Source: Pezizomycotina sp. ARF18 (Eukaryota; Ascomycota). From it: a DNA stretch of 64,000 bases. How positions within the stretch are numbered: position 1 is the stretch's first letter; each line of letters opens with the position of its first letter. Below are positions 2,438 through 61,222 of the stretch, one piece after another. Position numbers and translations under genes: made by a program. Where the stretch lies: contig AZLU01000166.1 in NCBI GenBank assembly GCA_002224055.1, positions 1 through 64,000 of the forward strand. The letters are read 5' to 3'. The notes under the pieces were generated by a model. That model saw only the letters and a list, made by a program, of their open reading frames with translations. It ran no database searches and was not told the DNA's origin.

Positions 2438-5400
2438 ATGAAATTTAAAAATCTTAGTCTGGAAGACCCCGTAAGTATCTCCTTTGAGACAATAATTGAG
2501 GTATTTCGAGTCATTGGGGCCTGTTTTAGGCGAGGCTGACAATAACAACCGTAGCCTCCGACTACGAGGAAGGCGTGTCCGAACGTCGTACTTGCACGAG
2601 ATGCGATCGAGAACGACCTGTGTCTCAGTTACGTTCATGTGCTGCCCTAGCTGCGGCGAGGAGACGCGTCTCTGCGTTGATCTTTGCGAAGATCCCGATT
2701 GCACGGAGACGGCAAGATGTGAAGGCGACTGTAAGACTTGCTGGGAGGCGCATCTTCCCCGCGCTCGTACCATCCGTCCAAATCACAGCCAGGTCTCAGT
2801 TGAAATGATAATGCACTTTCGACAAGTAATGGGTTTGCAAATCAATCAACACAACGCAATAGCTACCACTTCAAAGATCTCGATACAACATGGATTTACG
2901 TGCGCGAGGGAGCGGGCGGGAGGATGAGTTTGGCTTTAAGTAAGACTTTGCAATCGTACATGGCCATCTCGGCCGGCAGCCAAGTTCAGGAATCACCTGA
3001 ACCGGGCGGCGAGGAGAGCAACCTCACTAGATTTCCCTCGTTGGTATCATTTATCGGGGCCACCGGTGCGGGGAAATCAACGTTGATCCGCGCTCTCATC
3101 GCATTGTCGCAATTGAACGATTCAACGCTATTCCCCCTACCAGTCCCTGCGGCGACGGATTCCATCGGAAAGCCGACAAGTTCCAACGTCCATCTCTACC
3201 GAGATCCTGACACCGTCCATAGCCTTTCGCCGATATTTTTCGTCGATAGCGAAGGGTTAGATGCCGGGGAGGAAACGCCCGTATCCCAAGGTGCGTCGAG
3301 GGTCAAGAACGAGGGCTTGCCGCTACTTTAATGGAGGTCGCTCTTGATTATACCTTGGGATTTTTCAACCAGGAAAAGCCTAGAAGCTCCATAGTAGAAG
3401 AAGTATTCCCCAGATTTCTATATACATTCAGCGATGTCGTATGCTTCGTGGTAGGTAATGATCAGACAATCGGGAGAGATATTGTTCGCTTGGTCTTATG
3501 GGCTCGGACCGGAATGTCCAGCTCCGTTAACCAGCCAGCATTACCAAGTCTCATTCTTATATTGAATTACGTCAAGAACATGAGTTCGAAACCAGAAGAC
3601 CCGGCATTGTTAGTGGATAAAATGATGGAATCGGTGGAAAAGTTAATACATAACGACAAATGTTTGAGTGATATTGCTCGAGAGCTTGACCCCAAGGGCG
3701 CTTCTCTCCAGACCACTCAAGACTTGTTGCTAGTTTATTTCTCCCGGATCAGAGCATTCCCGTATACGGTTTAGATACCACATCAGTGGAACACCGAAAG
3801 TCCTCTCGCAGTGCCGGCGCTTACGCCGCCAGATCTGTAGCGATGTGCAGACAATCCAAGACGCTCGAGCGAATAGCCGACGACAATTTGATGTTGACCA
3901 GCTCGGCTTTTTAATGGAGAAGGCGACGCACCACTTCTCTTTTGGCAGCAAAAAGGCCTTCGATGTCTACGAACAGTTTGGCAGCCAGTGCCACGACCCA
4001 AAACCGTAGCAGACCATATCGATGAGTTTTTGCTATCGACCAAAGGCCTTCATGCCGTGCCTGAGACGAGTCTCCCAGTCACGGGGATCTTAGGGCGGCA
4101 TATTGCGTACGGTCTTTGCGCTGATTTCATCAGAAAGCATCGAAACTATGGTAAGTTTTGCCACTACGGTAGTAATAATGACTCAGCACAGTACTTTGAC
4201 AAATGCGATAGTATTTACCCTGGAGGACTTTAAGAAGAGCTATGAGGACCATATTCGGGATGGGTATCGGCAATTCCGCGCGGCCGACACGTGCACCTTC
4301 AGCGACCCAGACTCAGGGTCGCAGTGCCGAAGCCGACGTGAATTTCATGGTGACATTCACCGATTCGATAACGGAAGAAGCCTCATAGGTGTGTTTCGGG
4401 TCCTCCTGCGGACACGCTCTGGTGGACATTTATTCAGGAAGTATACTCTTTCTTAAAGGAGGCGGTGCAATGCGCCTCGTCAAAGGGACTTAACGTGTTT
4501 CTAGAAACCCACAACCAGTGCCTCCGAGACGTCGCGACGAATTTCAGGACAATCTACAGCATAAAAACGTGCCTGATTTGTCTTAGTGCGACGCCAGTTC
4601 ATCAGATCCCATGCAGGCATGGTTTCTGTGATGATTGTCTCAAAGTTCGCTCTAATTGCTCCAAGGATGGTACAGTTTTACATTTAGCTAAATGCCCGCT
4701 CTGTCAATTAGAGTCGCCGACAGAAAGTTGGCCATGGGTCAAGATTCTTAAACCGCCGTCTGCTGGTTGCCGCATCCTCTCGTTAGACGGTGGAGGCATT
4801 CGCGGCATCGTGCAACTGATAACACTGAGAATTTTGGAGCAGGAGCTAGGGCTGGGCATACCGCTGGCGAGGTATTTTGACCTGATCGTCGGCACAGGAA
4901 TGGTAAGTTTTCAACCATGCCGCCTCACCCATTAACCAAAACTCTGAACTGTAAATAAGTCATTGGCATTTTGAGATGCGGTTCTAGCTAACTCCCCTTG
5001 AAATAGGCGGCTTGGTCGCCGTTGGTTTGTACGAAGGGAAATCCATTGATAGCATGATTGAATCTTTCGCCACACTTTGCAAAGATGTTTTCGAACGCTC
5101 GCAGTACAAGGTATTCGATTATATCGTGGTGGGCTCTGTCGCACATTGGATATGTAATTGGGCAAAATACGACTCCAATATTATGAAAGCCAAATTGGCC
5201 GGCATTCTCGAAGATTGTGGCGCCAGGTCGATGCACGACCATCCCCATCCAAAGAATGTCTCTGCGAACCTTGTGCTCACTACCGTGAAGAGTTCGAACC
5301 TTGAGACCAACCTGATCACAAATTACAATCGCGCAAAAACAGGTGAGCAGACAGGCCTGTAGGAAGGATGGATATTTTTTGTTTACCGCTTTGAAATATG

Positions 5401-6411
5401 CAAGATTTTTGACCAGGTGGTTGAATGAATTTAGGGAGAGATGGCCAATTCTACGTCTTAGCACTCCTGATGGTGATATGAGCTGTCTTCAGGCGTAAGT
5501 ATTCAACCACTTCAATGCCATTCATGGCTGTGTAATCGTTAATAGCTTTGAATCAGTGTAATGGCCGCTACCGCCTCTCCGGGCTATTTCAAACCTGTTC
5601 AGTATGGTCCATCACAGTACATCGACGGTGGGTCTAAGTTTAGCTGCCCAGCTGAGGTAGCCCTGGTTGAGAGCGGACTCATCTGGCCTCAGACACATTC
5701 TTTAGATATGCTACTCTCTATCGGCACTGGGGTTTACGGTGGCTCCGAGACTAGTACGGCGATACCTGATAACTGGAGTCAGGGACGCTGGCAGCAGTTA
5801 GCCGGTTTAGGAGAATTTGAACCGAACGTCATGTACGAAAAATTCTCCAGCGATACATGGAAACGCACACGGGTCGCCTTCGCCGTCTCAACTTGGACAC
5901 TAAGGACTGCGGCCCGCCAAGGGCGGACGACTGTAGCAAAATCGGGATTCTGACGAAACTGGTTTTAGAGGACAAACTCCTTGAGGAATACATTAAGGAA
6001 ACGAGCATTCTGTTATTGAGTAGTTTGTTCTATTTCGTTCCTTCAAGCAGATCATACACGTTTAAATATGGATATCGCATCGACGGTTACATAAGATGTC
6101 GCCTTTGTGTAGAGGAAAGCGGTGAACATGAAGCTTTGCGAAAACTCATCCCAAGAATTCTTTTCTTCGGCGAGCGAATTGTCAGGCTTAATGGGCCACA
6201 TGTTCTCAGGCTCCCGGGTTCACAGGACTGGAGCGATAGCATCGGCGAGCATGGAATGTCATTTAAATGCAGCCTTGAGGCAGCAGATTCGAAGAAGGAT
6301 TACTTTCTAGCAGCAGCTTTCGAAGCTGAGAGGACCGGGAGCGGGTTAAGGGTTACACCAATTAGCGGCTTTCCGTGTTCTTTTGCAGGTCGGTCCATAC
6401 TTACTATCTGA
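2438..6411 (+). CDS. GTPase-RING-patatin multidomain protein, frame-broken
   Basis: The order is a Cys-rich zinc-binding N-terminus (2590-2760, CTRC and CPSCGEETRLC), a P-loop NTPase with Walker A GATGAGKST (about 3060) and FVDSEG (about 3240), a C3HC4 RING (CLIC, PCRHGFCDDC, CPLC; 4570-4710), then a patatin lipase domain. The patatin part shows the oxyanion loop DGGGIRG (4790), DLIVGTG (4880), the Asp motif YIDGG (5620) and LLSIGTG (5710). This order is known from large fungal patatin-like proteins that hydrolyse lipids and have NLR-like architectures. The start at 2438 precedes a GTAAGT donor and is uncertain. Likely introns are 4903-5006 and about 5344-5435 and 5494-5550. The frame changes at least six times, for example near 2640, 3290, 3775, 3980 and 5940, so this is either a decaying gene or indel-rich sequence. 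The patatin nucleophile Ser appears to be Gly. Confidence 0.75.
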
Positions 6412-25987: not shown

Positions 25988-28069
25988 TTGGTACTGGCAG
26001 AGACTTGAAGCAGGAAAAAATTAGTAAAATTATTAACTAAGAATTAGATCTATAGATAAGGTATTGATGAGAGTTCATGAAGACGGGAAAGGAGCGTCGG
26101 AGGTTGTTCATGTCGACAAGAAATAATCTAGGAATTAGAACACTTTGAGCTTTATAAAAAAATCTCGTCGGATTGCCACTGGTACGAATTCATTTGCCTA
26201 ATATGCGGGAACATTGTGTGATCGATCTTACCGTGCTCACATTTTGAATTGGAGGCGAGGCGTTTTCCGCAACAATGTTTCAGCGTTTTTAGAAACCTAG
26301 CGGGAGCACATCATTCTTACGACTCGGACTGTTCAATCGCCGGGGACTTTCTATTACCCGATTGATGTTCGACACTAGTTAAACAGGAAACTAGTAAAGC
26401 TTCGAGGTCGTATTATCGGTGATTTCTACTATCGATAGGCGACGGTCTGGACGACTTCCTTCCCTTAGATGCGGCCGAAACCCTTGTCGGGAATCTGAAA
26501 GCCGCTATGGTTCCGCTTTTAGTTTCCATGGAAGGGTAAATTTTGTCCTCGGTAAATCGAAGACGTAATATTGGAGTTTTCACGGGATCGACGAGCATGG
26601 CAGTGCGTCTGTTTCATTATCGAAAAATAATTCCCCATGTTTAATGCTCCTATCGCTCTACTCCTTTCAATGTCGCGGTCGTTAAGAATGGGTAATATTC
26701 AGGAGACGATCGTCAAATCATGGCGCTCTCTTGTTATGTGTTGGTGTATATCGGTGTGGTAGGACAACTGTAAGGCAAAATGGTCACAATACACGATGCA
26801 TGGAGAGCTGCAATATCTCCAAATGGCTTGATTATCTAATCCTATTATAGCATGCGTATATTTTTCTATATGGGAGCTTATTCCCACATTTTTGTAGTTT
26901 TAGAAACCATGCTCGCAAATTGACATATATTCTATAAAATCTGAAATTTCCGCGGGTAAACCGACATTATGCGTTCAAACTAAAGCTTATTATGTCAACG
27001 ACAGATGTTCGGTAAACATTCCTACCATGTATTGGTGCTTCAACAAAAACTCTAAATTTCTTCGGGGAGATATTTTATGCATAAAAGGCTTAGCCCTTGT
27101 CAAGCGAGGTTTCTATGAAGTCTTGCGCACGTCGATCTAGAACCGTAATTATTGTCTTCTCGCTTCAATGCCTTAAAAAAACTCCTTGAAAGCCCTCGGG
27201 TTATTGATAAGCAGCTGGTTCTTCAAGAGGATATTTAGTATTGATGTAACGAACAATCCACAGAGGTTCCGCGTGATTCGCTGTTTAGGTATTATGATCG
27301 GTGTTAAATTCCGCTTCTTTATCTCATGCCATTGTATTGTTTCTATTATTCCGTTTCAAGACACTGATACTTCCTATAAAGTGGTCAAACGAAGCTTAGG
27401 CTTTCTTCAGTCGCCATACGATCGGTTGACAGACTTTAAAAGGAGGACGTATAATGCTTCTCTAATAAGAGACACGTACACCGCCCTAATACACAACTCG
27501 GGGAAGCTTGGTTTACGGAGGAGCATTTCAGCAATTCTCCTCATTCTCGTTCTCAGGAAATCGAACTTCCAAGCGAGGATTTGAAACTATTCCACAATGA
27601 GAAGGTGATGAAAATGAACGGTTCCATTTGTCGTAGCACGGACATTTATTCGAATGCTACCGTGAAGCAGTTTGTTATCAAGTTTAATGCTATGTTCTGA
27701 GGTTAGGTTGACTGAGCTCTACGAAGTGTAGCCGCCGTTCAAAGTTGCCTTATACTTTCACGCTTGCACTGGTGTGATTACTATTAATAGTATCAATATA
27801 CATTCGACTATATACATCTATTAACATTAACCGTGATAGTCAATAACTCTTCGTGTGTTCTTCTTCTACCAAATTTTAAACGATCAAGACCCAAGAACAT
27901 GTACTTGTTTCGCTACTAGCAGCTGGGATGGATACGGGTAACAGTAGAAGAAAGAGGTTGACGCAAGGGAAATTCTCATTTAAGCACATAAAGCATCTCG
28001 AATTTATTTTTATTTTATCATGTTATTCAACTTATTTTTCTCAACAAAGGAACCTTGCTTCCGGGCGAT
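25988..28069. other. Long AT-rich spacer
   Basis: No supported gene over 2 kb. One 132-codon frame at 27186-27584 has no signal or domain. The interval includes the promoter of the aspartic-peptidase-like gene and the 3' flank of the BIM1-like gene. Confidence 0.45.
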
Positions 28070-29081
28070 TTAAGCATCGTGAGAAACAACCGACGCGGCC
28101 TTATTTTGAACCATGGCACGCTGGGCAGCTTCGGCGTCCTGAGCATCACGCTTCTTCCGGAGACCGAAGAAAACAGCGAGACCGAGATGGCGGAAGCACC
28201 AAGGATAGAACCAACGGCGATGCCGGCCTTAGCGCCAGTCGACAGTCCGTTATCGTGGCGGGCGGGAGCGGGAGTCTCCTTCGGCTTGCTATTAGACTGC
28301 GAAGAAGCGCGGCGGTAGACGAAGGGAGTCGAAGTCCGCGGCGGTGACGTTGAAGCAGGGATCTGAGAGTGGAAGTTTTTGGGAGCAACGAATTTCTAGA
28401 CCTACACATTAGAAACCGGATCACAGGGGTGAAGTGCGATGGAGGAAATGGGGATAACATACGACATCAGCGCAGGCGAAGAACGACTCGTCCTTGCCGG
28501 AGTCGTTGGACCAGTACTCCATCTGAATGGTGGCCTTCGTTCCCTCCGAGACGTCCTTGAGGAGGTCCGAGGGACGCGGTAGCACTGGTGACCAGGCTGG
28601 ATCTTGTCAACCTTGGCGGGATCAGGCTCTGCTGGAACTGAGACTGGATGCTAGGATCTGAAATGACAAGCATTAGAGCTCGGTGGCCTCTATACGCACA
28701 ATACGGTATTTTCGGTTTAGTTTTGAATTACTCACTGTCGTTATAGGAGATGTGGAAGGCGACGTTCCAGGCATCATCGGCAATGGAAAGAGCCACGGAA
28801 CCACCAGCTACAGAAAGAGAAAGAACAATGTTAGTTCATCTAGCCGAACAGAATATCCTGAAGACGATCCGTGTACTCACTAAGTGGAAAATCGGTCCTG
28901 TTGACGACGCCGCTAGAGCTACCGCAAGGTCCCTTGTTATCCTCAGAGGCAGACCACGGGCGGTCCTCTGGCCACAGGAAAGCAACCGGTCCCATAACAG
29001 TACCCTCAGCACCTTCACCGTGCTTCTGAGCAGTAGCAAGTCCCGTGAGGGCTGCAGCGAGAACTAAGCTTCGCGAAGCAT
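28070..29081 (-). CDS. BIM1-like copper acquisition protein (X325 domain) with C-terminal helix
   Basis: Four exons (29081-28881, 28807-28736, 28657-28464, 28401-28070) are delimited by canonical splice sites. A signal peptide (LVLAAALTGLATA) leads to KHGEGAEGTVMGPVAFLWP and EDRPWSASEDNKGPCGSSS, which match the mature start of the BIM1-like family with its N-terminal copper-ligand His. Further family landmarks are NRTDFPL, SVALSIADDAWNVAFHISYN, PGHQCYRVP and FFACADV. The family takes part in copper uptake (Cryptococcus Bim1) and has an LPMO-like fold. The C-terminus has a Gly-rich helix (GLSTGAKAGIAVGSILGASA) and a charged tail (FGLRKKRDAQDAEAAQ), so it is membrane-anchored. Five single-base gaps break the frame; three lie at CCC/GGG runs (28358, 28571, 28618), consistent with sequence error. 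Confidence 0.8.
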
Positions 29082-29859
29082 TGTTATCTTTTTGTTCGAT
29101 ATGGGCAAAATTGTCTTCTCGGCGAGAGGGTGGACTTGTAGAGACACAAGTATCGCAAATCTGAGAGTAAATCCTAATGGGAAGATAACTGAGGGATTAC
29201 AAGAGAGACAAAAGTTCTATCAGAGGTGCACCTAAGGGGCATAAAGCCCGAGTTAATATAGTTTCCCCAACAGCTTTTGGTTGGAATGTATTGCAAAGAC
29301 TACAATGAAGTCCTTGCTGCATTCCGAACGGGCCTCGCCGGTCCGGCACTGCATATCATATTTCCATGTGAAGTAGGTACGACGATAATACGGAGGTCAC
29401 AAGAAAAACACTAACCAATACCTCGTCGAAGATGTAGTATTGACTAGCCCTGAAGGGGCCGCGCATACAGTGTAGCTGATCTCTTGAAAACGGTCATGTC
29501 TAGCGGTAAACGGCCCAGGCCAAGCAGTATACTCTCCGTTCACTCTCTCGCCATCGCACTAGCGATTTAGTATCGATGATAAAGTCTTTATAAACATATC
29601 ACTAGCTTCATCAGATTTCTAATGAAAGGATCTAATCTGATTCATTTGGCACTCATGTGTCAATGACTGCCTGTGGCCCACTTGAGAACTAGCAGAAGTA
29701 CTTAATGCACGAAAGACAATCTAGAAGTATCTAAGGGTACCTTCGAAGATTAGAAAAAAATCTCATCCATCCATGCAAATTTCATGAGTCCTTTCCACGC
29801 ATTTCCTAGCATTTCCTATCACTTCCAGCCATCTCGTCCATGCTCCGATTCCAATAATC
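29082..29859. other. Intergenic promoter region of the BIM1-like gene
   Basis: No coding frame is supported. This is the upstream region of the minus-strand copper gene and borders a dense cluster of ATCWGATAA sites. Confidence 0.5.
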
Positions 29860-29868
29860 TTATCAGAT
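29860..29868 (-). promoter_or_regulatory. Iron-GATA (SreA-type) site 1
   Basis: TTATCAGAT is a perfect reverse-strand match to ATCWGATAA, the consensus of fungal iron-responsive GATA repressors (SreA/SRE type). With site 2 it forms a near-perfect 12-bp inverted repeat. Confidence 0.65.
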
Positions 29869-29883
29869 CCTGCATGTTCAAGG

Positions 29884-29892
29884 ATCAGATAA
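29884..29892 (+). promoter_or_regulatory. Iron-GATA (SreA-type) site 2
   Basis: ATCAGATAA is a perfect match on the plus strand, 15 bp after site 1 and facing it. Confidence 0.65.
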
Positions 29893-29955
29893 GATGGACC
29901 TTCCAAGACAATTCGAGACACTTATAGACCCTTGGCGTTATTCCGTCCTTGATTT

Positions 29956-29964
29956 TTATCAGAT
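29956..29964 (-). promoter_or_regulatory. Iron-GATA (SreA-type) site 3
   Basis: TTATCAGAT is a perfect reverse-strand ATCWGATAA match. Confidence 0.65.
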
Positions 29965-29972
29965 ACGCCATC

Positions 29973-29981
29973 TTATCTGAT
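29973..29981 (-). promoter_or_regulatory. Iron-GATA (SreA-type) site 4
   Basis: TTATCTGAT is a perfect reverse-strand ATCWGATAA match, 8 bp after site 3. Confidence 0.65.
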
Positions 29982-30043
29982 GCGGAATATACGGAAAAAG
30001 GCAGCTTATTGGCCAAGGACTAGTTGGCGTTGGGAGTTCCTTC

Positions 30044-30052
30044 TTATCAGAT
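30044..30052 (-). promoter_or_regulatory. Iron-GATA (SreA-type) site 5
   Basis: TTATCAGAT is a perfect reverse-strand match just upstream of a TATATA-like box (30055-30062) and of the small secreted-protein frame at 30078. Confidence 0.65.
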
Positions 30053-30077
30053 CCGCTATATACAGGCGCCAGGATAC

Positions 30078-30431
30078 ATGGATATAGGCAATAGCCTTTC
30101 TGGAGCTTTACTGCTTGTTCTATGCATAGCTTCCCTAGCTCCACTCTCCGAAGGAAAACCATGTCGTGATGCCAATTATCGCAATATCGTTCAAGGTTGG
30201 CTAGGTCTTCAAGGGCAATTGATACCGAGCGGCCGAGGATGGAGTACAAACGTCTACTTACGACTTCCAAATGACTGGGCAGAACCCCACTTTTTTTTTG
30301 AATCGAAGCATGTCTGCGACGAAGATATGCGGGAATTTTGCAGTATTCGGACCCGTTGTCTTTCCTTTTCGAAGACAACGGTGTTAATGGTTACAATGTC
30401 TGTCGCTGGCATGAGCGGCACTAACTTTTAG
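30078..30431 (+). CDS. Small putative secreted Cys-containing protein under iron-GATA sites
   Basis: The frame begins MDIGNSLSGALLLVLCIASL, a plausible signal peptide, then APLSEGKPCRDANYRNIVQG and LRLPNDWAEPHFFFESK. Near 30340 another frame reads FEDNGVNGYNVCRWHERH, which looks more protein-like than the continuing one. A single-base break there is likely, so the C-terminus is uncertain. No family is recognised. A TATA-like box ends only about 16 bp before this ATG, so the true start could lie downstream or the box may be incidental. Five ATCWGATAA sites within 220 bp upstream suggest iron-dependent control. Confidence 0.45.
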   Translation: MDIGNSLSGALLLVLCIASLAPLSEGKPCRDANYRNIVQGWLGLQGQLIPSGRGWSTNVYLRLPNDWAEPHFFFESKHVCDEDMREFCSIRTRCLSFSKTTVLMVTMSVAGMSGTNF

Positions 30432-30814
30432 AAAGGAAGCCAGTCTTTCGGTCACGGTCTCCGGCATCGCGCGAGGGAGTACAAGATGTGTTACAAGACG
30501 TGAAAGTGTGATAATAGTTAATAGAAAGAATGTTTCTGAGTAACCTGTAGGAGGTCCGGTGCTCATTTACCCGAGCTATATTTTAATGATACGTATACAT
30601 GGATGTCAAGCTTCTGGAGCTTTGGGTACGTTATAGGTCTTGCCGAAGATTTTGCCTATATTACGCTCTGAATTCCCCTCTTCTCCTCTCGATCCCGTGA
30701 AGGCATTGAAGCAATACTATTCATCCTCTAATTCCAGCGTATCGGTCACTCGTTTACAACTTAAGAAATTCGTCTCTCGTTCTTCAAGTTTATACAATTC
30801 ATCCGTCATCGAAA

Positions 30815-31820
30815 ATGGTTAACTTCCAGGTATCCGCTCTGATCCTCGGCGCCGTCGCCATCCAAGGCGCTTACGCGTCCGCCATCGACGAAGACTGGCC
30901 CATCAAGCTTCTCAAGAGGCAACAGCCCGGTACCCCTGCGTACAACTGCCACGACAACTGCGGTACGTCTGGTCCACGTGCTTCATTTTATCCACTCTGT
31001 AAACCTAGTCTGATGATTCATCTGTTACTACTCTGCAGGCCAAGCCATCATCGCTTCCCGCGGCTCCACCCATGCAATGACAAGGTCTTCACCACCGACT
31101 ACAAGGTCTGCCTCTCCTGCGCCGGCCCAGACAACTACAATATCTGGCAGTACTACGGCCGCACCTTGAGCATTGCTGCCGGCAAGTGCAACTTGCCCAC
31201 TACTCCGGCGTCTGGCAAACAGCCCGACCCCCCGGTCGCTCTCACCGCTCCAGGTGGTGAGGGTATCACCGGCCCACCAGGAGGAAATGCGTCCCAGCCC
31301 CGTTCCGAGCCCGCTTCCACTGAAGCTGCTTCTCCCAGTCCTGAACCGGCCAGCCAAACTCCCCAGGCCCCGTCCCAGACCGCGGTGCCTGTGACTAGCC
31401 TAGCTGCGTCTGGGGCCCCTGCTAACCCGTCTCCGAGTGAGACCGCTGGACCCGCTCCGGTCACCCAGACCCGGCCACTTCCGGGTCCGACTCCGGTAAG
31501 TACAATTCCCTCGCACCGCGTATATTTTAGATTCGACAAACTAAACGCGCTGAATTTAATTGCAGCTGCCCCTCCCGCTCAGACTACCGCCGGCAACGCA
31601 ACTGTACGTAAACCTGGTAATGGAGCAGAATCGGAATCCCCTCCCCAACCAGTTTTCCTTTTTGTCTTAACTAATTTGCGCACGTACTAACGATCCGAAT
31701 CTTTTCCAGACTTCTGCAGGGCCTATCCCCCCGCCCGTGTCAACGGGCGCCGCTAATTCCCTCTCGGCCAACATCTGGGCGGCTGCCGTCCTCGCCTTTT
31801 TCGTTGCTATCCGCATCTAA
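30815..31820 (+). CDS. GPI-anchored Cys-rich surface protein
   Basis: Four exons (30815-30962, 31039-31495, 31566-31603, 31710-31820) have canonical splice sites. A signal peptide (MVNFQVSALILGAVAIQGAY) is followed by a dibasic KR before QQPG. The Cys-rich domain holds YNCHDNCGQAII, CNDKVFTTDYKVCLSC, IWQYYGRTLSIAAGKC. A long Pro/Ser/Thr/Ala-rich stalk follows, then a GPI-type tail (ANSLSANIWAAAVLAFFVAI). It resembles a fungal family of wall proteins with a C-H-x-N-C-G start. Two single-base gaps remain, both at CCC runs (31069 and 31470). Adding a C at each restores every exon phase, so the gene is probably intact in the organism. Confidence 0.8.
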
Positions 31821-32286
31821 GCGTGGCATTTGCGAATTTCTCAGCTCCTCGTTGATTCGCAAATACATTGTACGAGATTTGCAGATCGCTGATGGCGAAA
31901 GAGATGAAATTTACGTGACTTAAAGTCTCAAACCTCAAGACACGATACAGGCTCCGATGGTCATGAACCGCGAGCTCAATTGTTAATCTTCTAGACATTT
32001 CGGTTTTGCTTCAGAACAAAAAAATTTCCCGTTGCATTTGTGATGTTTTGTTATTGCATTGTAAAATAAAAACCACCCTTGTATGATAAAGAGACTCCTT
32101 AGTCACTATATTAGAAAGAATAGACCTAATTTCTATGAAAATGATACGCACTTATATGTATAACAGCCTAAAGCAAATATTCAGTCATTAGACTTTAGAA
32201 GTGCGAAGTTAAAACAGTCTAATCATCGACGAACATCCTTCTGCCGGAGCGAATCACATTGAACCGCTCGGTAACCATGCATAGTA
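31821..32286. other. Convergent 3' spacer
   Basis: AT-rich DNA between the GPI-protein gene (+) and the F-box-like gene (-). No feature is seen. Confidence 0.5.
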
Positions 32287-39476: not shown

Positions 39477-41718
39477 ATGCAGGATTCAGAACGCTCACTT
39501 CCGGATGATGTGGCGGCAATTAATGAGAACATGGCGGCGCTGTCGGTGGGCCCGAGCAAAGATGAGGGTTACCGTGGTCTCGTGGAAAGGCTATGCGGTG
39601 GGGGGAATGATGAAGCGGTTAGAGCTTTGAAATGGGTTCTTTGCAGCAAAAAGGCCGCTTACATTCGCTGAGTTGGCGGATGCTGTTGCCACCGACGAGC
39701 ATGATGGGCTTCAGACTCGAGAGCAGATCATCGCGCCATGTCATGGGCTTTTCAAAGATATAGGAGGCTACGCGTCGTTCTCAGACCCCTCGATCCGCAG
39801 TTATCTTGAAGGCACACCTGGCTTCAGTAACAGGGATAAATGCGAGGAAGGCCTAGCCCTATCTTGCATCGGTTACCTCTCCCGCTTTACCGAGGGCCCT
39901 TGCAAGGCTAGGCCAGAGCTACACGACCAGCATGAAAAGCACCCATTCTTCGACTATGCGGCGTGCAACTGGGGCCATCATGTAACGGCAAGCTATCAGT
40001 CTACCTCTGGCGAAAGTGAAAGTGAAGAACTCCAGAGCAGTGTTCTCGCTTTCCTCAACAATGACGCGCTACGAGACGCGATGGTACAAGCACTACATGT
40101 ATCTCCACACTCGCCTCTGAACCCTTGTCCGGTAAGTTAGCGTACTTCGATGGGTACCCTAGGTCCTCAACCCCGCTACACCTCGCAGCGTACTTCGACA
40201 TGGTACCCGAAGCACGGATATTGCTGGGCCTCCCTGGTAACATCAATAATTCGATTCTCCTATCCCGCGACTCTGACCAGCAAACTGCGCTGCACGTAGC
40301 CGCCAGCGCCGGCTCAAACAATTTCATAAGCTGCTTTTATCGCTCCCCGCAGCAGAGATTGACGTAAACGACGTCGCGGGATCGCATAAAGGCGGAACGC
40401 CGCTATGCCTCTCCGCGGGGGCAGGTCATTACCATACGTGCGACCTGCTGCTGAAGCACGGCGCCAGTGTAATGCGTGCCTGGCCACAGACGGGTTGGGG
40501 GCCTCTGTTGGCAGCGAGCAAAGGCGGCTACGCGAACATCGTCCTCCTGCTACTAGCGCACCGTGGCGTGGTCAGCGGACGTAACCGCGCCGGCAGGAGT
40601 CCATTACTCGAAGCAGTGGAAGGCGGGCACGTAGGCGTCGTCAAAATACTCCTAGACCACGGCGCTGGGAAGGAAATGCTAGTTACTGCGAATTTCAGCT
40701 TCGCGACACCGCTGCGTAGCGCTGTCGAGGGAGGCGATGAGATAATTGTCGAGATGATGCTCGACGATGCCGCGAAGGAAGGATTGGAAGTTGACGGCGG
40801 TACTTTGGTTAAAATCGCGGCGGAGAACGGAAATGTGGATGTTATACGTCTTTTGGGGAGCGAAACCTTGTTCCGGATGATGCGATCGGTGGCGCGGTGT
40901 ATCAGGCGGCGTATAAGGGACAAGAACACGTCGTGGACTTGTTTCTCGGAGGGTCGCATAGTATTTCGGGGTATCGAAATGAGGCAAACGGGTGGACGTG
41001 TTTACACGCCGCGGTGCATAAGTACGATCCTACGAGCAGCGTGAGTATAATTGGGAAACTTGTCTCGCTGGGCGTTCCTATTGATGCTTCTGATAATGGC
41101 GGGGAAACGGCGTTGCATCGAGCCGCTCTCCGTGTTCACACGTCGCACGTTGAAGCGCTGCTAGGTCTAGGTGCGAATGTCAATTCTCATCGCCTCGATG
41201 GCATGACGCCGATGCATCTGGCCGTCGAGAGCGGCGCAGTAGACGTCGTCGAAATACTGCTGAAAACGCCAGAATTAAACCTCGACGCCCGCGATGGAAA
41301 AGGCAGGACCGCGCTACACGTCGCCGCAGAGCGAGAGCATTTAAAGTCGCGACCGAAAGCATATTTCAGCGGTGCTAACAGGATGAGGGAAGAGAACGTT
41401 TTCGCGACCCACGAGATGGTCGAGCTAATAGCTCATTCAGCTTCTGGAAAGCAAATACTCAATACGACCGACAAAGACGGCAGAACAGCCCTTCATCTTT
41501 GCGCCGAGACGGGGAACGCAGGAGTTGCGCAGTTTCTCGTGAAGTACGGCGCCGACGTTACTATGGAGAACTATGAAAATTCGACGGCCCGGCAAATAGC
41601 CGAGAGGAACGGTTTTCAGCATGTTGTGAAGGCACTCAATGGTGAAATGGCAGAGGTGATTGGCAGGCGGTGGAAACGGAGAGCGGATCCATCGAACCCC
41701 ACTGAAAACAGAGCGTGA
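39477..41718 (+). CDS. Ankyrin-repeat protein with NLR-type winged-helix start
   Basis: From MQDSERSLPDDVAAINENMA it reaches ALKWVLCSKRPLTFAELADA, then CHGLFKDIGGYASFSDPSIR and a CIGYLSRF segment. This order is seen just after the NACHT domain of fungal NLR-like proteins. About ten ankyrin repeats follow: TPLHLAAYFDM, TALHVAASAG, GWGPLLAASKGGYANIVLLL, SPLLEAVEGGHVGVVKILLD, TALHRAALRVHTSHVEALL, TPMHLAVESGAVDVVEILL, TALHLCAETGNAGVAQFLV, ending NPTENRA. No NTPase domain precedes it. Four frame changes remain, three at homopolymers: AAAAA 39648, CCC 40122, a gap near 40335, GGGG 40855. A normal intact gene is likely. It may be a scaffold or an NLR fragment. Confidence 0.75.
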
Positions 41719-43537: not shown

Positions 43538-44415
43538 ATGATGGGCTCCGCATGGGCGAATCTTGCTCCGATGAAACCTCTCGCCGGCGCAGACGCCAAC
43601 GGCGAAGTATGGAACTGATCCCAAACAAAGTCTTTTTGAAAGCAGGCGATAACAGCGCCAACTTATCGACGGCGGGCAGATTTGTTACATCTGTTGTGCA
43701 CCTACAGTCCTTCATGGCGAACCCCGGTAAACACACATTCACAATCATCGACCTACGAGAAGCCTGTAAGAATAACATGCAATGTCTTTGATTTACTCAA
43801 GAGTCTAAGAATCTTAGCTAACATGATATCTTTCAATAGCCCTCTACAATTACGCACACATCCGCTCCGCCCTGAGCTTCCTCTTAACGACCCTGACACC
43901 CGCTCCCGCTCGCCTTCCCCGCCTCTTCTTGGCCTTCCTTTACCATATTCTCCGGCCCCGTATCCGTCAGCCAAGCAAAGCATCTCATCCATCCTTCTGT
44001 CGACTCCGGCTCGCTGCCCGATGTTTTCCAGGAAGCGCTAGGAAAGGATTACGTTATATTCCATTGCCAACAATCAACACACAGAGGCCCGACGATAGCG
44101 AGTGCATGGGCGAACTATTTGAAAGCAAATGGCGACAAGCGGACAAAGGTGGTCCTACTAAACGGCGGCTGGTCTGCTGTTGAGAAGTGGGATACGGGTC
44201 GGGAGCATATCGAGGAGAGAGTACAGCTTGAGGGTTCCAGTGTTTCGTCTTCGGCTTTATCGACAGTTTCGTTACAATATACAACTTCAGGGAGACAAAA
44301 CGTCAATACAGTGATAATGGGTTTCCCAGTGTCAATCAAATTAGCCCGATCAGGCGGTCGGAGTCGGCTGGTACGTGATCACTCTGGGACGAAATCAGGC
44401 TTCACTGGCGGATGA
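43538..44415 (+). CDS. Rhodanese-like protein with C-x5-R active loop
   Basis: ATG at 43538 (MMGSAWANLAPMKPLAGADA) precedes RFVTSVVHLQSFMANPGKHT and FTIIDLREA. An intron (43766-43839) then splices to SLYNYAHIRSALSFLL. This IDLRE...AHIRSAL pattern is the rhodanese fold start (usual form DVRE...GHI.GA). Downstream come GKDYVIFHCQQSTHRGPTIA (about 44041-44100) and VVLLNGGWSAVEKW. The loop CQQSTHR is a C-x5-R signature as in Cdc25 and Acr2-type rhodanese phosphatases and arsenate reductases. A Ser-rich tail follows. Frame breaks lie near 43610 and near 43990. Whether it acts as sulfurtransferase, phosphatase or arsenate reductase cannot be told from sequence. Confidence 0.65.
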
Positions 44416-58725: not shown

Positions 58726-61222
58726 TAGGAAATAAGCGAAAGGTAGGTTAACGAGAGTGAACGAATTCGAAGTAGATTATAAAGGGGAGTGAAGTGTAAA
58801 AAGGAAGCTGTGTTCAAGGGCTATTATAACAGCCTCAGAATACAATTGTGAGATTTAGCAAAATATGAATGAATGCTGAACGTGAACTGGCTGATGAAAA
58901 TTCTGAATGGGAAAGCGCAATGTCGAGGTTTATATATTGTTCGGCCTGATGCTGGGGCTCTAATATCAACAGATAAATGCGAATCCATAGGCAAACTTTC
59001 CAACGATTCTTATTTCGGCTCGTGGTCTCGGTACGTACCACTCGAAGGGATCTAGATCATTCTAGGGACGATCCCCTCCACCGTGACGACAGATCTCGAT
59101 ATACGGGAACGAGGCGACTATATATATCGCTGCGTTGCTAACGCTAGCATGGCGTGAGCCGGATGCGGCCACCGATCGCACTTCTACATCGACATTCGCG
59201 ATAGATTAGCGGCTAGACGTCGTCTTCTAGAAGGTTTTTTCCCTGTATATGGTCTACCGCGGGAAACATCGGGTGGAACCTACGGCATAATAAATGTTCT
59301 AGCGTACACCAATGAGCTGAAAGGGGCAAGAGATGACAGAGTTACGGAGACGAGATCGATGATATCTTAGCGAGGCACTGAGGATAACACCTCGAGTGGC
59401 TGATGACGGATTAGTGGCCTGGGTGCGGCGAACTAATACTGGCCATGAGTGAGGTAATCTGCTGCATCAAGAAATCTGTTTGTGGTAACGGCTTTGCCCT
59501 TCTAGAAACCCCACCCAACAAAGAAGAAAAGATCGGATGAAAAGATCGATGAAAGGGGCATGCAGGATACGGAGAAATGGCCTTCGACGGATTTGGTATA
59601 GCTGTGTTGGAGTTAAATTCAAAAAGAAAAGGTTCCCGTAGACTTAGCTAGTGATCATCACCGAAGGGAATAACCTAGGCTGGCCTTATCCAAGTTCTTA
59701 CAAAACAATAGCCTTGGACTCCAGTGAATACTACTATCTTCAACAAAGAGTTCATACTTCTTTCATAGATTATGATGGAATTGCGCTATCGAGTTCCACT
59801 AGGCTATCATCATGCTTATGTATGATCCTTTATCCCATGAGTGCTTGGAGGTCCCACCTGGCTAATGGATACTGCTACCTATTCGATACTGCATTGACAA
59901 GGCGAGGAAGTCTATAGCGCTAGCAGTAACAGATATTCGAGGAGCTCCACTGCTCATACATGCTTGTTGGTAGATACAGGCTTGGCGCTATAAACGTGTA
60001 AGATAGCAAACTTTGAAGCCCTGTTCCATAATGTTCAATGTGACTGAGGTCTAGTAAAAAGAACCGCGCAGGTAGGCTCTCCAAAAGACGCCATATTATT
60101 TCGTTAATACTGTCAATATAGAGAGGTGAATCTCTCATTTATTTTTGAGGCACTATAGACCGCATCACGTATCTTAGTAGGAGAACTCCCAAAGGCTGCA
60201 TTGGCCAAAGGGAAGCTGTCGAGCTTTAACGTCGGCTCAAGCTTGTGCGTATTATGAGTTCAGCATGAGGGGGGAGCTTCAATCACTCTTCGATAAGTTA
60301 TGGTTAGCATAAGGCCCTTAACTCACGAGAGATACCCGGCGAATAGGGAAAAGCACTCGAAAAAACCGGGCGGCGATCCGAGCCGTGTAAATAAACAAGG
60401 CCAAGGTCTGTCGGAATGATGAATCACCCTCGATTCCTCGTATAATGATTCGTATATAAACGCGAAAATTAGTGAGTATATCTGCATATGCATCTGCAGC
60501 TCTTCCTCGCTTATACCATTGTGCTTAAACCTTAATGGTTGCTTTCCTCTTGAGCTCGCTCGGCCTGGTGGAGTTGGAGCATGAAACAGGAAACAGCCGG
60601 GATCTAGAGCTGGCTATGACTACTCCTCCGTCTGATTTCACTACAACGGGAGGCTCAGCAAGAGCAATAGCACTCTAGGCAGCACCTGCAGAAAACATAC
60701 TTGCAGTAGCTCGCAAAAGTACGAAAAGGCTTCCCATTTCCCTGCTTTTCATTCCTATATGCAACCAAGAGGATCCACAATACATCAAGGGCACGGCCGT
60801 TGCTCTGCAAGTAGGCACCTGGCCGGGAATAAACGAGCTGGGCCAGGAGGATTTCACCGTTCTCATTCGCTGTTTCGGCGTCGCTCGGGTATAAAAACCC
60901 TGCGAGGCTATGTTCAGCAGCCTAGGAACCCCACATGGCACATAAGCGAACAAGCAAAGCGACAGTCAGCCAAGCGGGGCTGACTCGCATCCTTCAACGC
61001 TTTACAAAAAAAAAAAAAAAAAAAAAAAATTTCCTCAATCCTGCTCACTCTCCCCCTTTTTGATCCTCCTGCTCCCGCCTTTCAGACTCCACTCACTGCC
61101 GAATGTAAAACCTCCTCGAACGCCCCTTCCTTCAGTCTTCAGTCGTTTCACCTCCTTATTCACCTCGAGACCTAACGTGCCTCTGAGGCCGCCTAGTCCA
61201 GTCAATCCAAGACATCACCACC
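58726..61222. other. Long spacer with a 24-bp poly(A) tract
   Basis: No supported gene. A run of 24 A lies at 61006-61029, about 190 bp before the start of the downstream Pro-rich protein. Open frames near 60675-60983 on both strands lack features. Confidence 0.45.
61006..61029 (+). repeat. Poly(A) homopolymer tract
   Basis: Twenty-four consecutive A residues in intergenic DNA. It could be a promoter poly(dA:dT) element or the tail of an inserted cDNA; no upstream element is recognisable. Confidence 0.8.

What the first reader, a model, noticed from the sequence alone, without database searches (positions are those of the whole stretch)
29860..30052. Five perfect iron-GATA (ATCWGATAA) sites in 193 bp
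Five exact matches to the SreA/SRE-type consensus on both strands, at 29860, 29884, 29956, 29973 and 30044. About one match is expected by chance per 64 kb. The cluster lies directly upstream of a small secreted-protein frame and about 0.8 kb upstream of a divergent BIM1-like copper gene. It predicts strong iron repression of one or both, and a possible iron-copper link.
Basis: partly seen in the sequence, partly recalled or inferred. Interest (0 to 1): 0.75.

Follow-up and report, generated by a model that had tools for sequence, protein, structure and literature searches.

The report
Dense iron-repressor sites in fungal promoter
A 193-base stretch just upstream of a small, probably secreted fungal protein carries five perfect copies of the sequence that fungal iron sensors bind, so this gene is probably switched off when iron is plentiful, but that has not been measured and the protein itself resembles nothing found here.

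Summary
ATCWGATAA occurs exactly five times in the 64 kb, all within 29860-30052, at the stated positions. Of 1,106,919 nine-letter patterns (at most one two-fold ambiguity) it is the only one reaching five non-overlapping copies in 193 bp. None of 900 simulated windows reached four copies of it. All 5 WGATAA boxes in the array carry the ATC extension; 0 of 73 elsewhere do.

Best reading: an iron-GATA (SreA/Sre1/Urbs1/Fep1-type) repressor array in the promoter of a 117-residue frame with a signal-peptide-like start (ATG 30078, 25 bp after the last site), silencing it when iron is plentiful. A BIM1-like gene (PF20238) lies divergently 0.78 kb away and an unclassified secreted gene 0.76 kb downstream; either could share the array.

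The iron-copper link is only positional: no TTTGCTC copper box or CBC:HapX site lies between the BIM1-like start and the small frame. Some sites may be local copies of each other. No fungal genome was available, so regulator, conservation and iron response are untested. It is a dense example of a known kind of element, on an unknown gene.

The parts
29860..29868 (-). iron-GATA site 1, ATCTGATAA
   Evidence: exact match
29884..29892 (+). iron-GATA site 2, ATCAGATAA
   Evidence: exact match; inverted match to sites 1 and 4
29956..29964 (-). iron-GATA site 3, ATCTGATAA
   Evidence: exact match
29973..29981 (-). iron-GATA site 4, ATCAGATAA
   Evidence: exact match
30044..30052 (-). iron-GATA site 5, ATCTGATAA
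   Evidence: exact match
30056..30064 (+). TATA-like stretch between site 5 and the small frame; inferred by eye, function unproven
   Evidence: sequence
30078..30431 (+). small frame, 117 aa plus stop, signal-peptide-like N-terminus; nearest candidate target
   Evidence: translation; hydrophobic start rare in simulations, codon usage neutral; no family
28070..29081 (-). divergent BIM1-like (PF20238) gene, with introns and a broken frame; candidate second target; limits approximate
   Evidence: sequence; frames; Pfam on pieces
30815..31820 (+). unclassified secreted Cys-rich gene with hydrophobic tail, with introns and a broken frame; candidate third target; limits approximate
   Evidence: no Pfam family at a meaningful score
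29851..29855 (+). CCAAT box beside site 1, without the CBC:HapX half-site
30008..30012 (-). CCAAT box between sites 4 and 5, without the CBC:HapX half-site

Best explanation
The five sites form an iron-GATA repressor array in the promoter of the small secreted-protein gene at 30078. When iron is plentiful, the fungus's Sre-type GATA factor occupies the partly palindromic ATCWGATAA sites and shuts transcription; when iron is scarce it lets go and the secreted protein is made. Shown here: the sites, their exact consensus, their non-random clustering, and their position at -218 to -26 relative to the start codon. Inferred: that the frame is a gene, that a Sre-type factor exists in this fungus and binds, and the direction of the response. 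The protein would be an extracellular iron-starvation product of undetermined activity (scavenging, cell surface, or aimed at hosts or competitors). The divergent BIM1-like gene and the secreted gene at 30815 may share the control.
For: Five exact matches, all in 193 bp; the only one of 1,106,919 nine-letter patterns with five copies in 193 bp; none of 900 simulations reached four; 5 of 5 WGATAA boxes inside carry ATC against 0 of 73 outside. The nine-mer is the motif enriched 5.4-fold upstream of SreA-regulated genes (PMC2610380, passages); FgSreA occupies ATCWGATA-bearing promoters by ChIP-qPCR (PMC10602907, passages); mutating a motif that contains ATCAGATAA in the A. fumigatus ftrA promoter ended iron repression (-Fe/+Fe ratio 1.1; PMC10294635, passages). 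Frames of at least 110 aa with as hydrophobic a start as the small frame average 0.033 per simulated window (2 in 60).
Against: No expression, binding or conservation data. Codon usage of the small frame is neutral (-0.010; simulated frames -0.050 +/- 0.044; rank 43 of 80 ATG frames); no Pfam family, PDB sequence or confident fold supports it. Site 5 and a TATA-like stretch lie within 35 bp of the ATG, an unusually cramped promoter. No iron-uptake family among the frames scanned. Possible duplication lowers the number of independent sites, and no CBC:HapX site was found.
Confidence: 0.6

Rival explanations
1. The array is an iron-GATA repressor element, but its target is the divergent BIM1-like gene or the secreted gene at 30815 (or both), and the small frame is not a working gene.
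For: The array lies about midway, 779 bp from the start codon at 29081 and 763 bp from that at 30815. The small frame has neutral codon usage and a cramped start. A site between divergent ftrA and fetC is functional (PMC10294635, passages).
Against: The small frame is only 25 bp away and has a rare hydrophobic start. Nothing but distance ties the array to the other genes; both have broken frames in this sequence.
Confidence: 0.2
2. Another fungal GATA factor (nitrogen, light or development) reads the sites.
For: Every ATCWGATAA contains HGATAR, and two pairs of sites lie 24 and 17 bp apart. In the larger interval 29083-30077 there are 11 HGATAR boxes, six of them outside the array.
Against: The ATC extension is on 5 of 5 WGATAA boxes in the array and on 0 of 73 elsewhere, which plain GATA readers would not require; the palindromic form is the one tied to SreA orthologues (PMC2610380, passages).
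Confidence: 0.08
3. The array is a local duplication of a GATA-containing unit, without regulatory effect today.
For: Flanks agree (51 against 40.1 +/- 2.6); unit pairs 1-5 and 3-5 align better than nearly all shuffles (1 and 8 of 400); 19-base direct repeats at spacings 96 and 88. Neighbouring frames are broken.
Against: The nine-mers are perfect while the spacers have diverged; pair 1-3 aligns no better than shuffles (77 of 400); sites occur on both strands; the region has no other copy in the window.
Confidence: 0.12

Closest known systems
Aspergillus fumigatus SreA regulon promoters (PMC2610380, passages seen)
   Same: The identical extended motif ATCWGATAA, 5.4-fold over-represented upstream of 49 SreA-regulated genes; secreted products such as the endopeptidase Pep1 are among the targets.
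   Different: Here five perfect copies in 193 bp stand beside a frame with no recognised iron function; binding and iron response are unmeasured.
A. fumigatus ftrA/fetC bidirectional promoter (PMC10294635, passages seen)
   Same: An ATCAGATAA site between divergent genes; mutating the motif ended iron repression.
   Different: There one extended site paired with a complementary GATAA, plus SrbA and AtrR sites, at iron-uptake genes; here five extended sites, no TCANNCCA box in 29083-30077 and no iron-uptake gene recognised.
Siderophore-cluster promoters with (G/A)ATC(T/A)GATAA in Histoplasma, A. fumigatus and Paracoccidioides (PMC4144954, passages seen)
   Same: Same core; 3 of 5 sites here have G at -1, as in that consensus.
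   Different: Those sites lie at siderophore genes; none was recognised here.
Ustilago maydis Urbs1 sites at sid1 and S. pombe Fep1 sites at str1 and fio1-fip1 (as described in PMC2610380, passages seen)
   Same: In vivo sites of SreA orthologues that conform to ATCWGATAA.
   Different: Different genes; those sequences were not compared here.
BIM1/Cbi1/X325 copper proteins (PF20238)
   Same: The divergent neighbour carries the domain: N-terminal piece 42 bits against a cut-off of 27.
   Different: Known control is by copper (Cuf1 in C. neoformans, PMC9258870; copper withholding for two of three P. destructans genes, PMC12113139); the passages seen report no iron-GATA array.

Membership tests
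Iron-GATA (SreA/Sre1/Urbs1/Fep1-type) repressor element | Exact ATCWGATAA sequence | tested here: met
   5 exact matches
Iron-GATA (SreA/Sre1/Urbs1/Fep1-type) repressor element | Over-represented upstream of a start codon | tested here: met
   5 of 5 window matches lie at -218 to -26 of one ATG; 0 of 900 simulated windows reach four in 193 bp
Iron-GATA (SreA/Sre1/Urbs1/Fep1-type) repressor element | Extended palindromic form rather than plain HGATAR | tested here: met
   5 of 5 WGATAA in the array have ATC, 0 of 73 elsewhere
Iron-GATA (SreA/Sre1/Urbs1/Fep1-type) repressor element | Bound by a Sre orthologue of this fungus | not testable with these tools
   No genome is held for this window
Iron-GATA (SreA/Sre1/Urbs1/Fep1-type) repressor element | Iron-repressed transcription of the adjacent gene | not testable with these tools
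   Needs RNA from cultures
Iron-GATA (SreA/Sre1/Urbs1/Fep1-type) repressor element | Conservation in related species | not testable with these tools
   No fungal collection on hand; no relative of the small frame in viral or prokaryote contigs
CBC:HapX iron-starvation promoter | CSAATN12RWT bipartite site | tested here: not met
   0 in 29083-30077 against 20 in the window; three CCAAT boxes without the second half
Mac1/Cuf1-type copper-responsive promoter (BIM1-like gene) | TTTGCTC or TGTGCTCA box (motifs recalled, from no call) | tested here: not met
   0 of either in 29083-30077 (12 and 1 in the window); the looser TTTGC[TG] has one hit, TTTGCG at 29154(-), against 1.36 per kb in the window
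BIM1/X325 family (PF20238) | Pfam domain above the curated cut-off | tested here: met
   N-terminal piece E 1.6e-10, 42 bits against 27; a second piece 22.9 bits, below the cut-off; a third, 24-residue piece no match
BIM1/X325 family (PF20238) | N-terminal histidine of the mature protein (copper brace) | tested here: inconclusive
   A His lies near the likely signal cleavage (AQKHG); cleavage cannot be set and the frame is broken upstream

The most novel reading that the evidence does not exclude
One iron-GATA array between a BIM1-like copper-capture gene and two secreted-protein genes switches all three, so that iron starvation raises surface copper capture (copper being needed by the ferroxidase of high-affinity iron uptake) together with a new family of small secreted iron-starvation proteins.
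Probability: 0.12. Interest if true: 0.7.

Novelty: new member of a known kind. Interest (0 to 1): 0.42.

Why it matters
If the prediction holds, an uncharacterised secreted protein is assigned to the iron-starvation response of its fungus from DNA alone, with a cheap test at hand. Five perfect sites in 193 bp would make the promoter a convenient model for how the number and spacing of sites set the strength of iron repression. Co-control of the BIM1-like gene would tie iron sensing to extracellular copper capture at the level of transcription.

Tried and rejected
Chance clustering: rejected. General AT- or GATA-richness: rejected; the 438 bp upstream of the frame is 57% AT and holds only one HGATAR box outside the five sites. 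CBC:HapX site and copper boxes TTTGCTC/TGTGCTCA: none in 29083-30077. Multicopy repeat or transposon: neither 29600-30500 nor 27900-32000 has a second blastn match in the window at E 0.001. Other dense clusters genome-wide: not testable, no genome held. Identity of the small protein: Pfam gave only KASH at E 0.098, below its cut-off; best PDB sequence E 0.31; AlphaFold2 without an alignment gave mean pLDDT 53.8 and Foldseek had 0 of 644 matches at E 0.001 or better, so the fold is left open; no relative in viral or prokaryote contigs. Gene at 30815: first exon no Pfam match, a second piece only TPR_17 at E 0.12; best PDB sequence E 0.072, a designed protein. RNA genes: no Rfam family at gathering score and no tRNA. 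Iron genes in the window: 44 of about 115 stop-to-stop frames of 110 aa or more (counted by hand) plus six sequences at the locus were scanned against Pfam; matches were BIM1-like, patatin/RING, ankyrin, a weak rhodanese and weak P-loop or transmembrane-type hits, with no siderophore, reductase or iron-permease family. The other frames were not scanned, and introns and broken frames could hide an iron gene.

Full report
What was checked. The window reads as filamentous-fungus DNA (inferred from short GT-AG introns in the genes near the array; GC of 2-kb steps 0.41-0.57). Shuffles expect 1.45 in the whole window.

Is it more than chance? Three controls agree. First, 300 simulated windows for each of three Markov orders: the best cluster in 193 bp was 3 (once in 900), never 4 or 5. 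Second, a blind scan of 1,106,919 distinct nine-letter patterns with at most one two-fold ambiguity found one pattern with five non-overlapping copies in 193 bp, ATCWGATAA itself. Eight patterns had four, two of them shifted readings of the same sites, and 12 simulated windows had no pattern with four (first run). So the densest nine-letter cluster of the window is, without choosing it beforehand, the published iron-GATA motif. Third, of 78 WGATAA boxes in the window the five in the array carry the 5' ATC and 0 of the 73 others do. It is the extended form that is concentrated, not GATA in general.

Caveat on independence. Beyond the nine letters all five sites share G at -2 and A at +2, and the 8-base flanks agree more than random letters of the region would (51 against 40.1 +/- 2.6; 1 of 5,000 as good). 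Units around sites 1 and 5, and 3 and 5, align better than shuffles that keep the nine-mers (1 of 400 and 8 of 400 as good); 1 and 3 do not (77 of 400). Sites 1, 3 and 5 lie in a 19-base direct repeat at spacings 96 and 88, and site 2 is an inverted match to site 1 (15 nt, 93%) and to site 4 (14 nt, 100%). Either some sites descend from one another, or the shared flanks are part of the binding preference. If some are copies, five sites are less improbable than the simulations say; perfect nine-mers in diverged spacers still hint at maintenance.

What lies around it. (a) A frame of 117 aa starts at ATG 30078, 25 bp after the last site. Its start is signal-peptide-like by a hydrophobicity measure (peak 3.0 over 11 residues). 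Frames of at least 110 aa with that strength average 0.033 per simulated window (60 windows), and 2 of 80 real ATG frames of at least 90 aa reach it. Codon usage is neutral (the training set was only 1,118 codons), so 'probably a gene' is as far as the evidence goes. A run of nine T at 30291 lies inside the frame, so its C-terminal part is less certain. (b) On the minus strand, start codon 29081, is a gene whose N-terminal piece matches PF20238, BIM1-like (42 bits, cut-off 27). (c) From 30815 runs another secreted protein, Cys-rich then Pro/Ser/Thr-rich, with a hydrophobic tail like that of GPI-anchored proteins (read), without a meaningful Pfam match. The array starts 779 bp from (b) and ends 763 bp from (c), so it is nearly midway. 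Genes (b) and (c), and the ankyrin gene at 40-41.7 kb, cannot be read in one frame per exon in the sequence as given.

How it most likely works. Schrettl et al. (PMC2610380, passages seen) report ATCWGATAA as 5.4-fold over-represented upstream of 49 SreA-regulated genes. They note that in vivo sites at U. maydis sid1 and S. pombe str1 and fio1-fip1 comply with it, and describe orthologues with two GATA fingers and an interjacent Cys-rich region (C. neoformans Cir1 lacks the first finger). In the ftrA promoter the motif containing ATCAGATAA was mutated and iron repression vanished (ratio 1.1; PMC10294635, passages). FgSreA occupies ATCWGATA-bearing promoters by ChIP-qPCR, more so in excess iron (PMC10602907, passages). 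A Scedosporium paper and a Paracoccidioides paper use the same consensus (PMC5932178; PMC4144954; passages). Applied to the array, this gives repression of the nearest gene, the small secreted protein, in iron-replete cells and release under iron starvation. Secreted products without an obvious iron function have precedent in the SreA regulon (Pep1). The step from site to regulation is inference.

Which gene? By distance the small frame leads. Against it stand neutral codon usage and a cramped start: site 5 and a TATA-like stretch lie within 35 bp of the ATG. The divergent and downstream genes remain possible, as the ftrA/fetC intergenic region shows. HGATAR boxes outside the array also occur in the interval (six of 11 in 29083-30077, two of them at 29084 and 29183 close to the BIM1-like start), at a density no higher than expected from the window's 3.78 per kb.

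The iron-copper idea. BIM1/Cbi1 in C. [quoted passage not shown] In P. destructans two of three BIM1-like genes are named as induced by copper withholding (PMC12113139, passages); in its proteome the third was not detected (PMC13208438, passages). X325 relatives are also tied to cell-wall and developmental roles (PMC9695133, passages). Between 29083 and 30077 there is no TTTGCTC or TGTGCTCA box and no CSAATN12RWT site; a looser TTTGC[TG] occurs once, at about its background rate. So an iron-driven BIM1-like gene would be unexpected, but only position argues for it. Literature: none of the 12 papers listed held Cir1 together with Bim1 or Cbi1. One search showed only 10 of 1,004 papers, ranked in a way that could hide one with BIM1-like and iron terms, so absence from print is not established; many papers are not held.

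Verdict. The element is a new member of a known kind (iron-GATA sites), unusual for its density and for sitting on a gene of unknown family. Iron repression is likely but unmeasured; the iron-copper link is a possibility with little support.

Noticed in passing
28070-29081, 30815-31820, 40277-41715: Reading frames of recognisable genes shift within exons; the sequence may carry assembly indels, or some genes are decayed. Not mended.
   Followed up: partly
30291-30299: Run of nine T inside the small secreted-protein frame; the frame beyond it is uncertain.
   Followed up: no
30815-31820: Secreted Cys-rich protein with a Pro/Ser/Thr-rich region and hydrophobic tail; no Pfam family at a meaningful score.
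   Followed up: partly
29519, 29931, 30012, 30068: Four PacC-like GCCARG boxes (motif recalled) in 29083-30077, three of them in the array region, against 0.92 per kb in the window; a pH input is possible but was not tested.
   Followed up: no
4372-5950: Frames with weak RING-type and patatin matches, below curated cut-offs.
   Followed up: no
40277-41715: Ankyrin-repeat gene read in two overlapping frames of one strand.
   Followed up: no
2804-3328: Frame with weak P-loop (AAA/ABC/GTPase) matches, below cut-off.
   Followed up: no
43897-44412: Weak rhodanese-like match, E 0.004, below cut-off.
   Followed up: no
8809, 9681, 47673: Three other places where a nine-letter pattern occurs four times within 193 bp.
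   Followed up: no
53059 (-): 110-aa frame whose N-terminus is as hydrophobic as that of the small secreted frame.
   Followed up: no
61006-61029: Run of 24 A.
   Followed up: no
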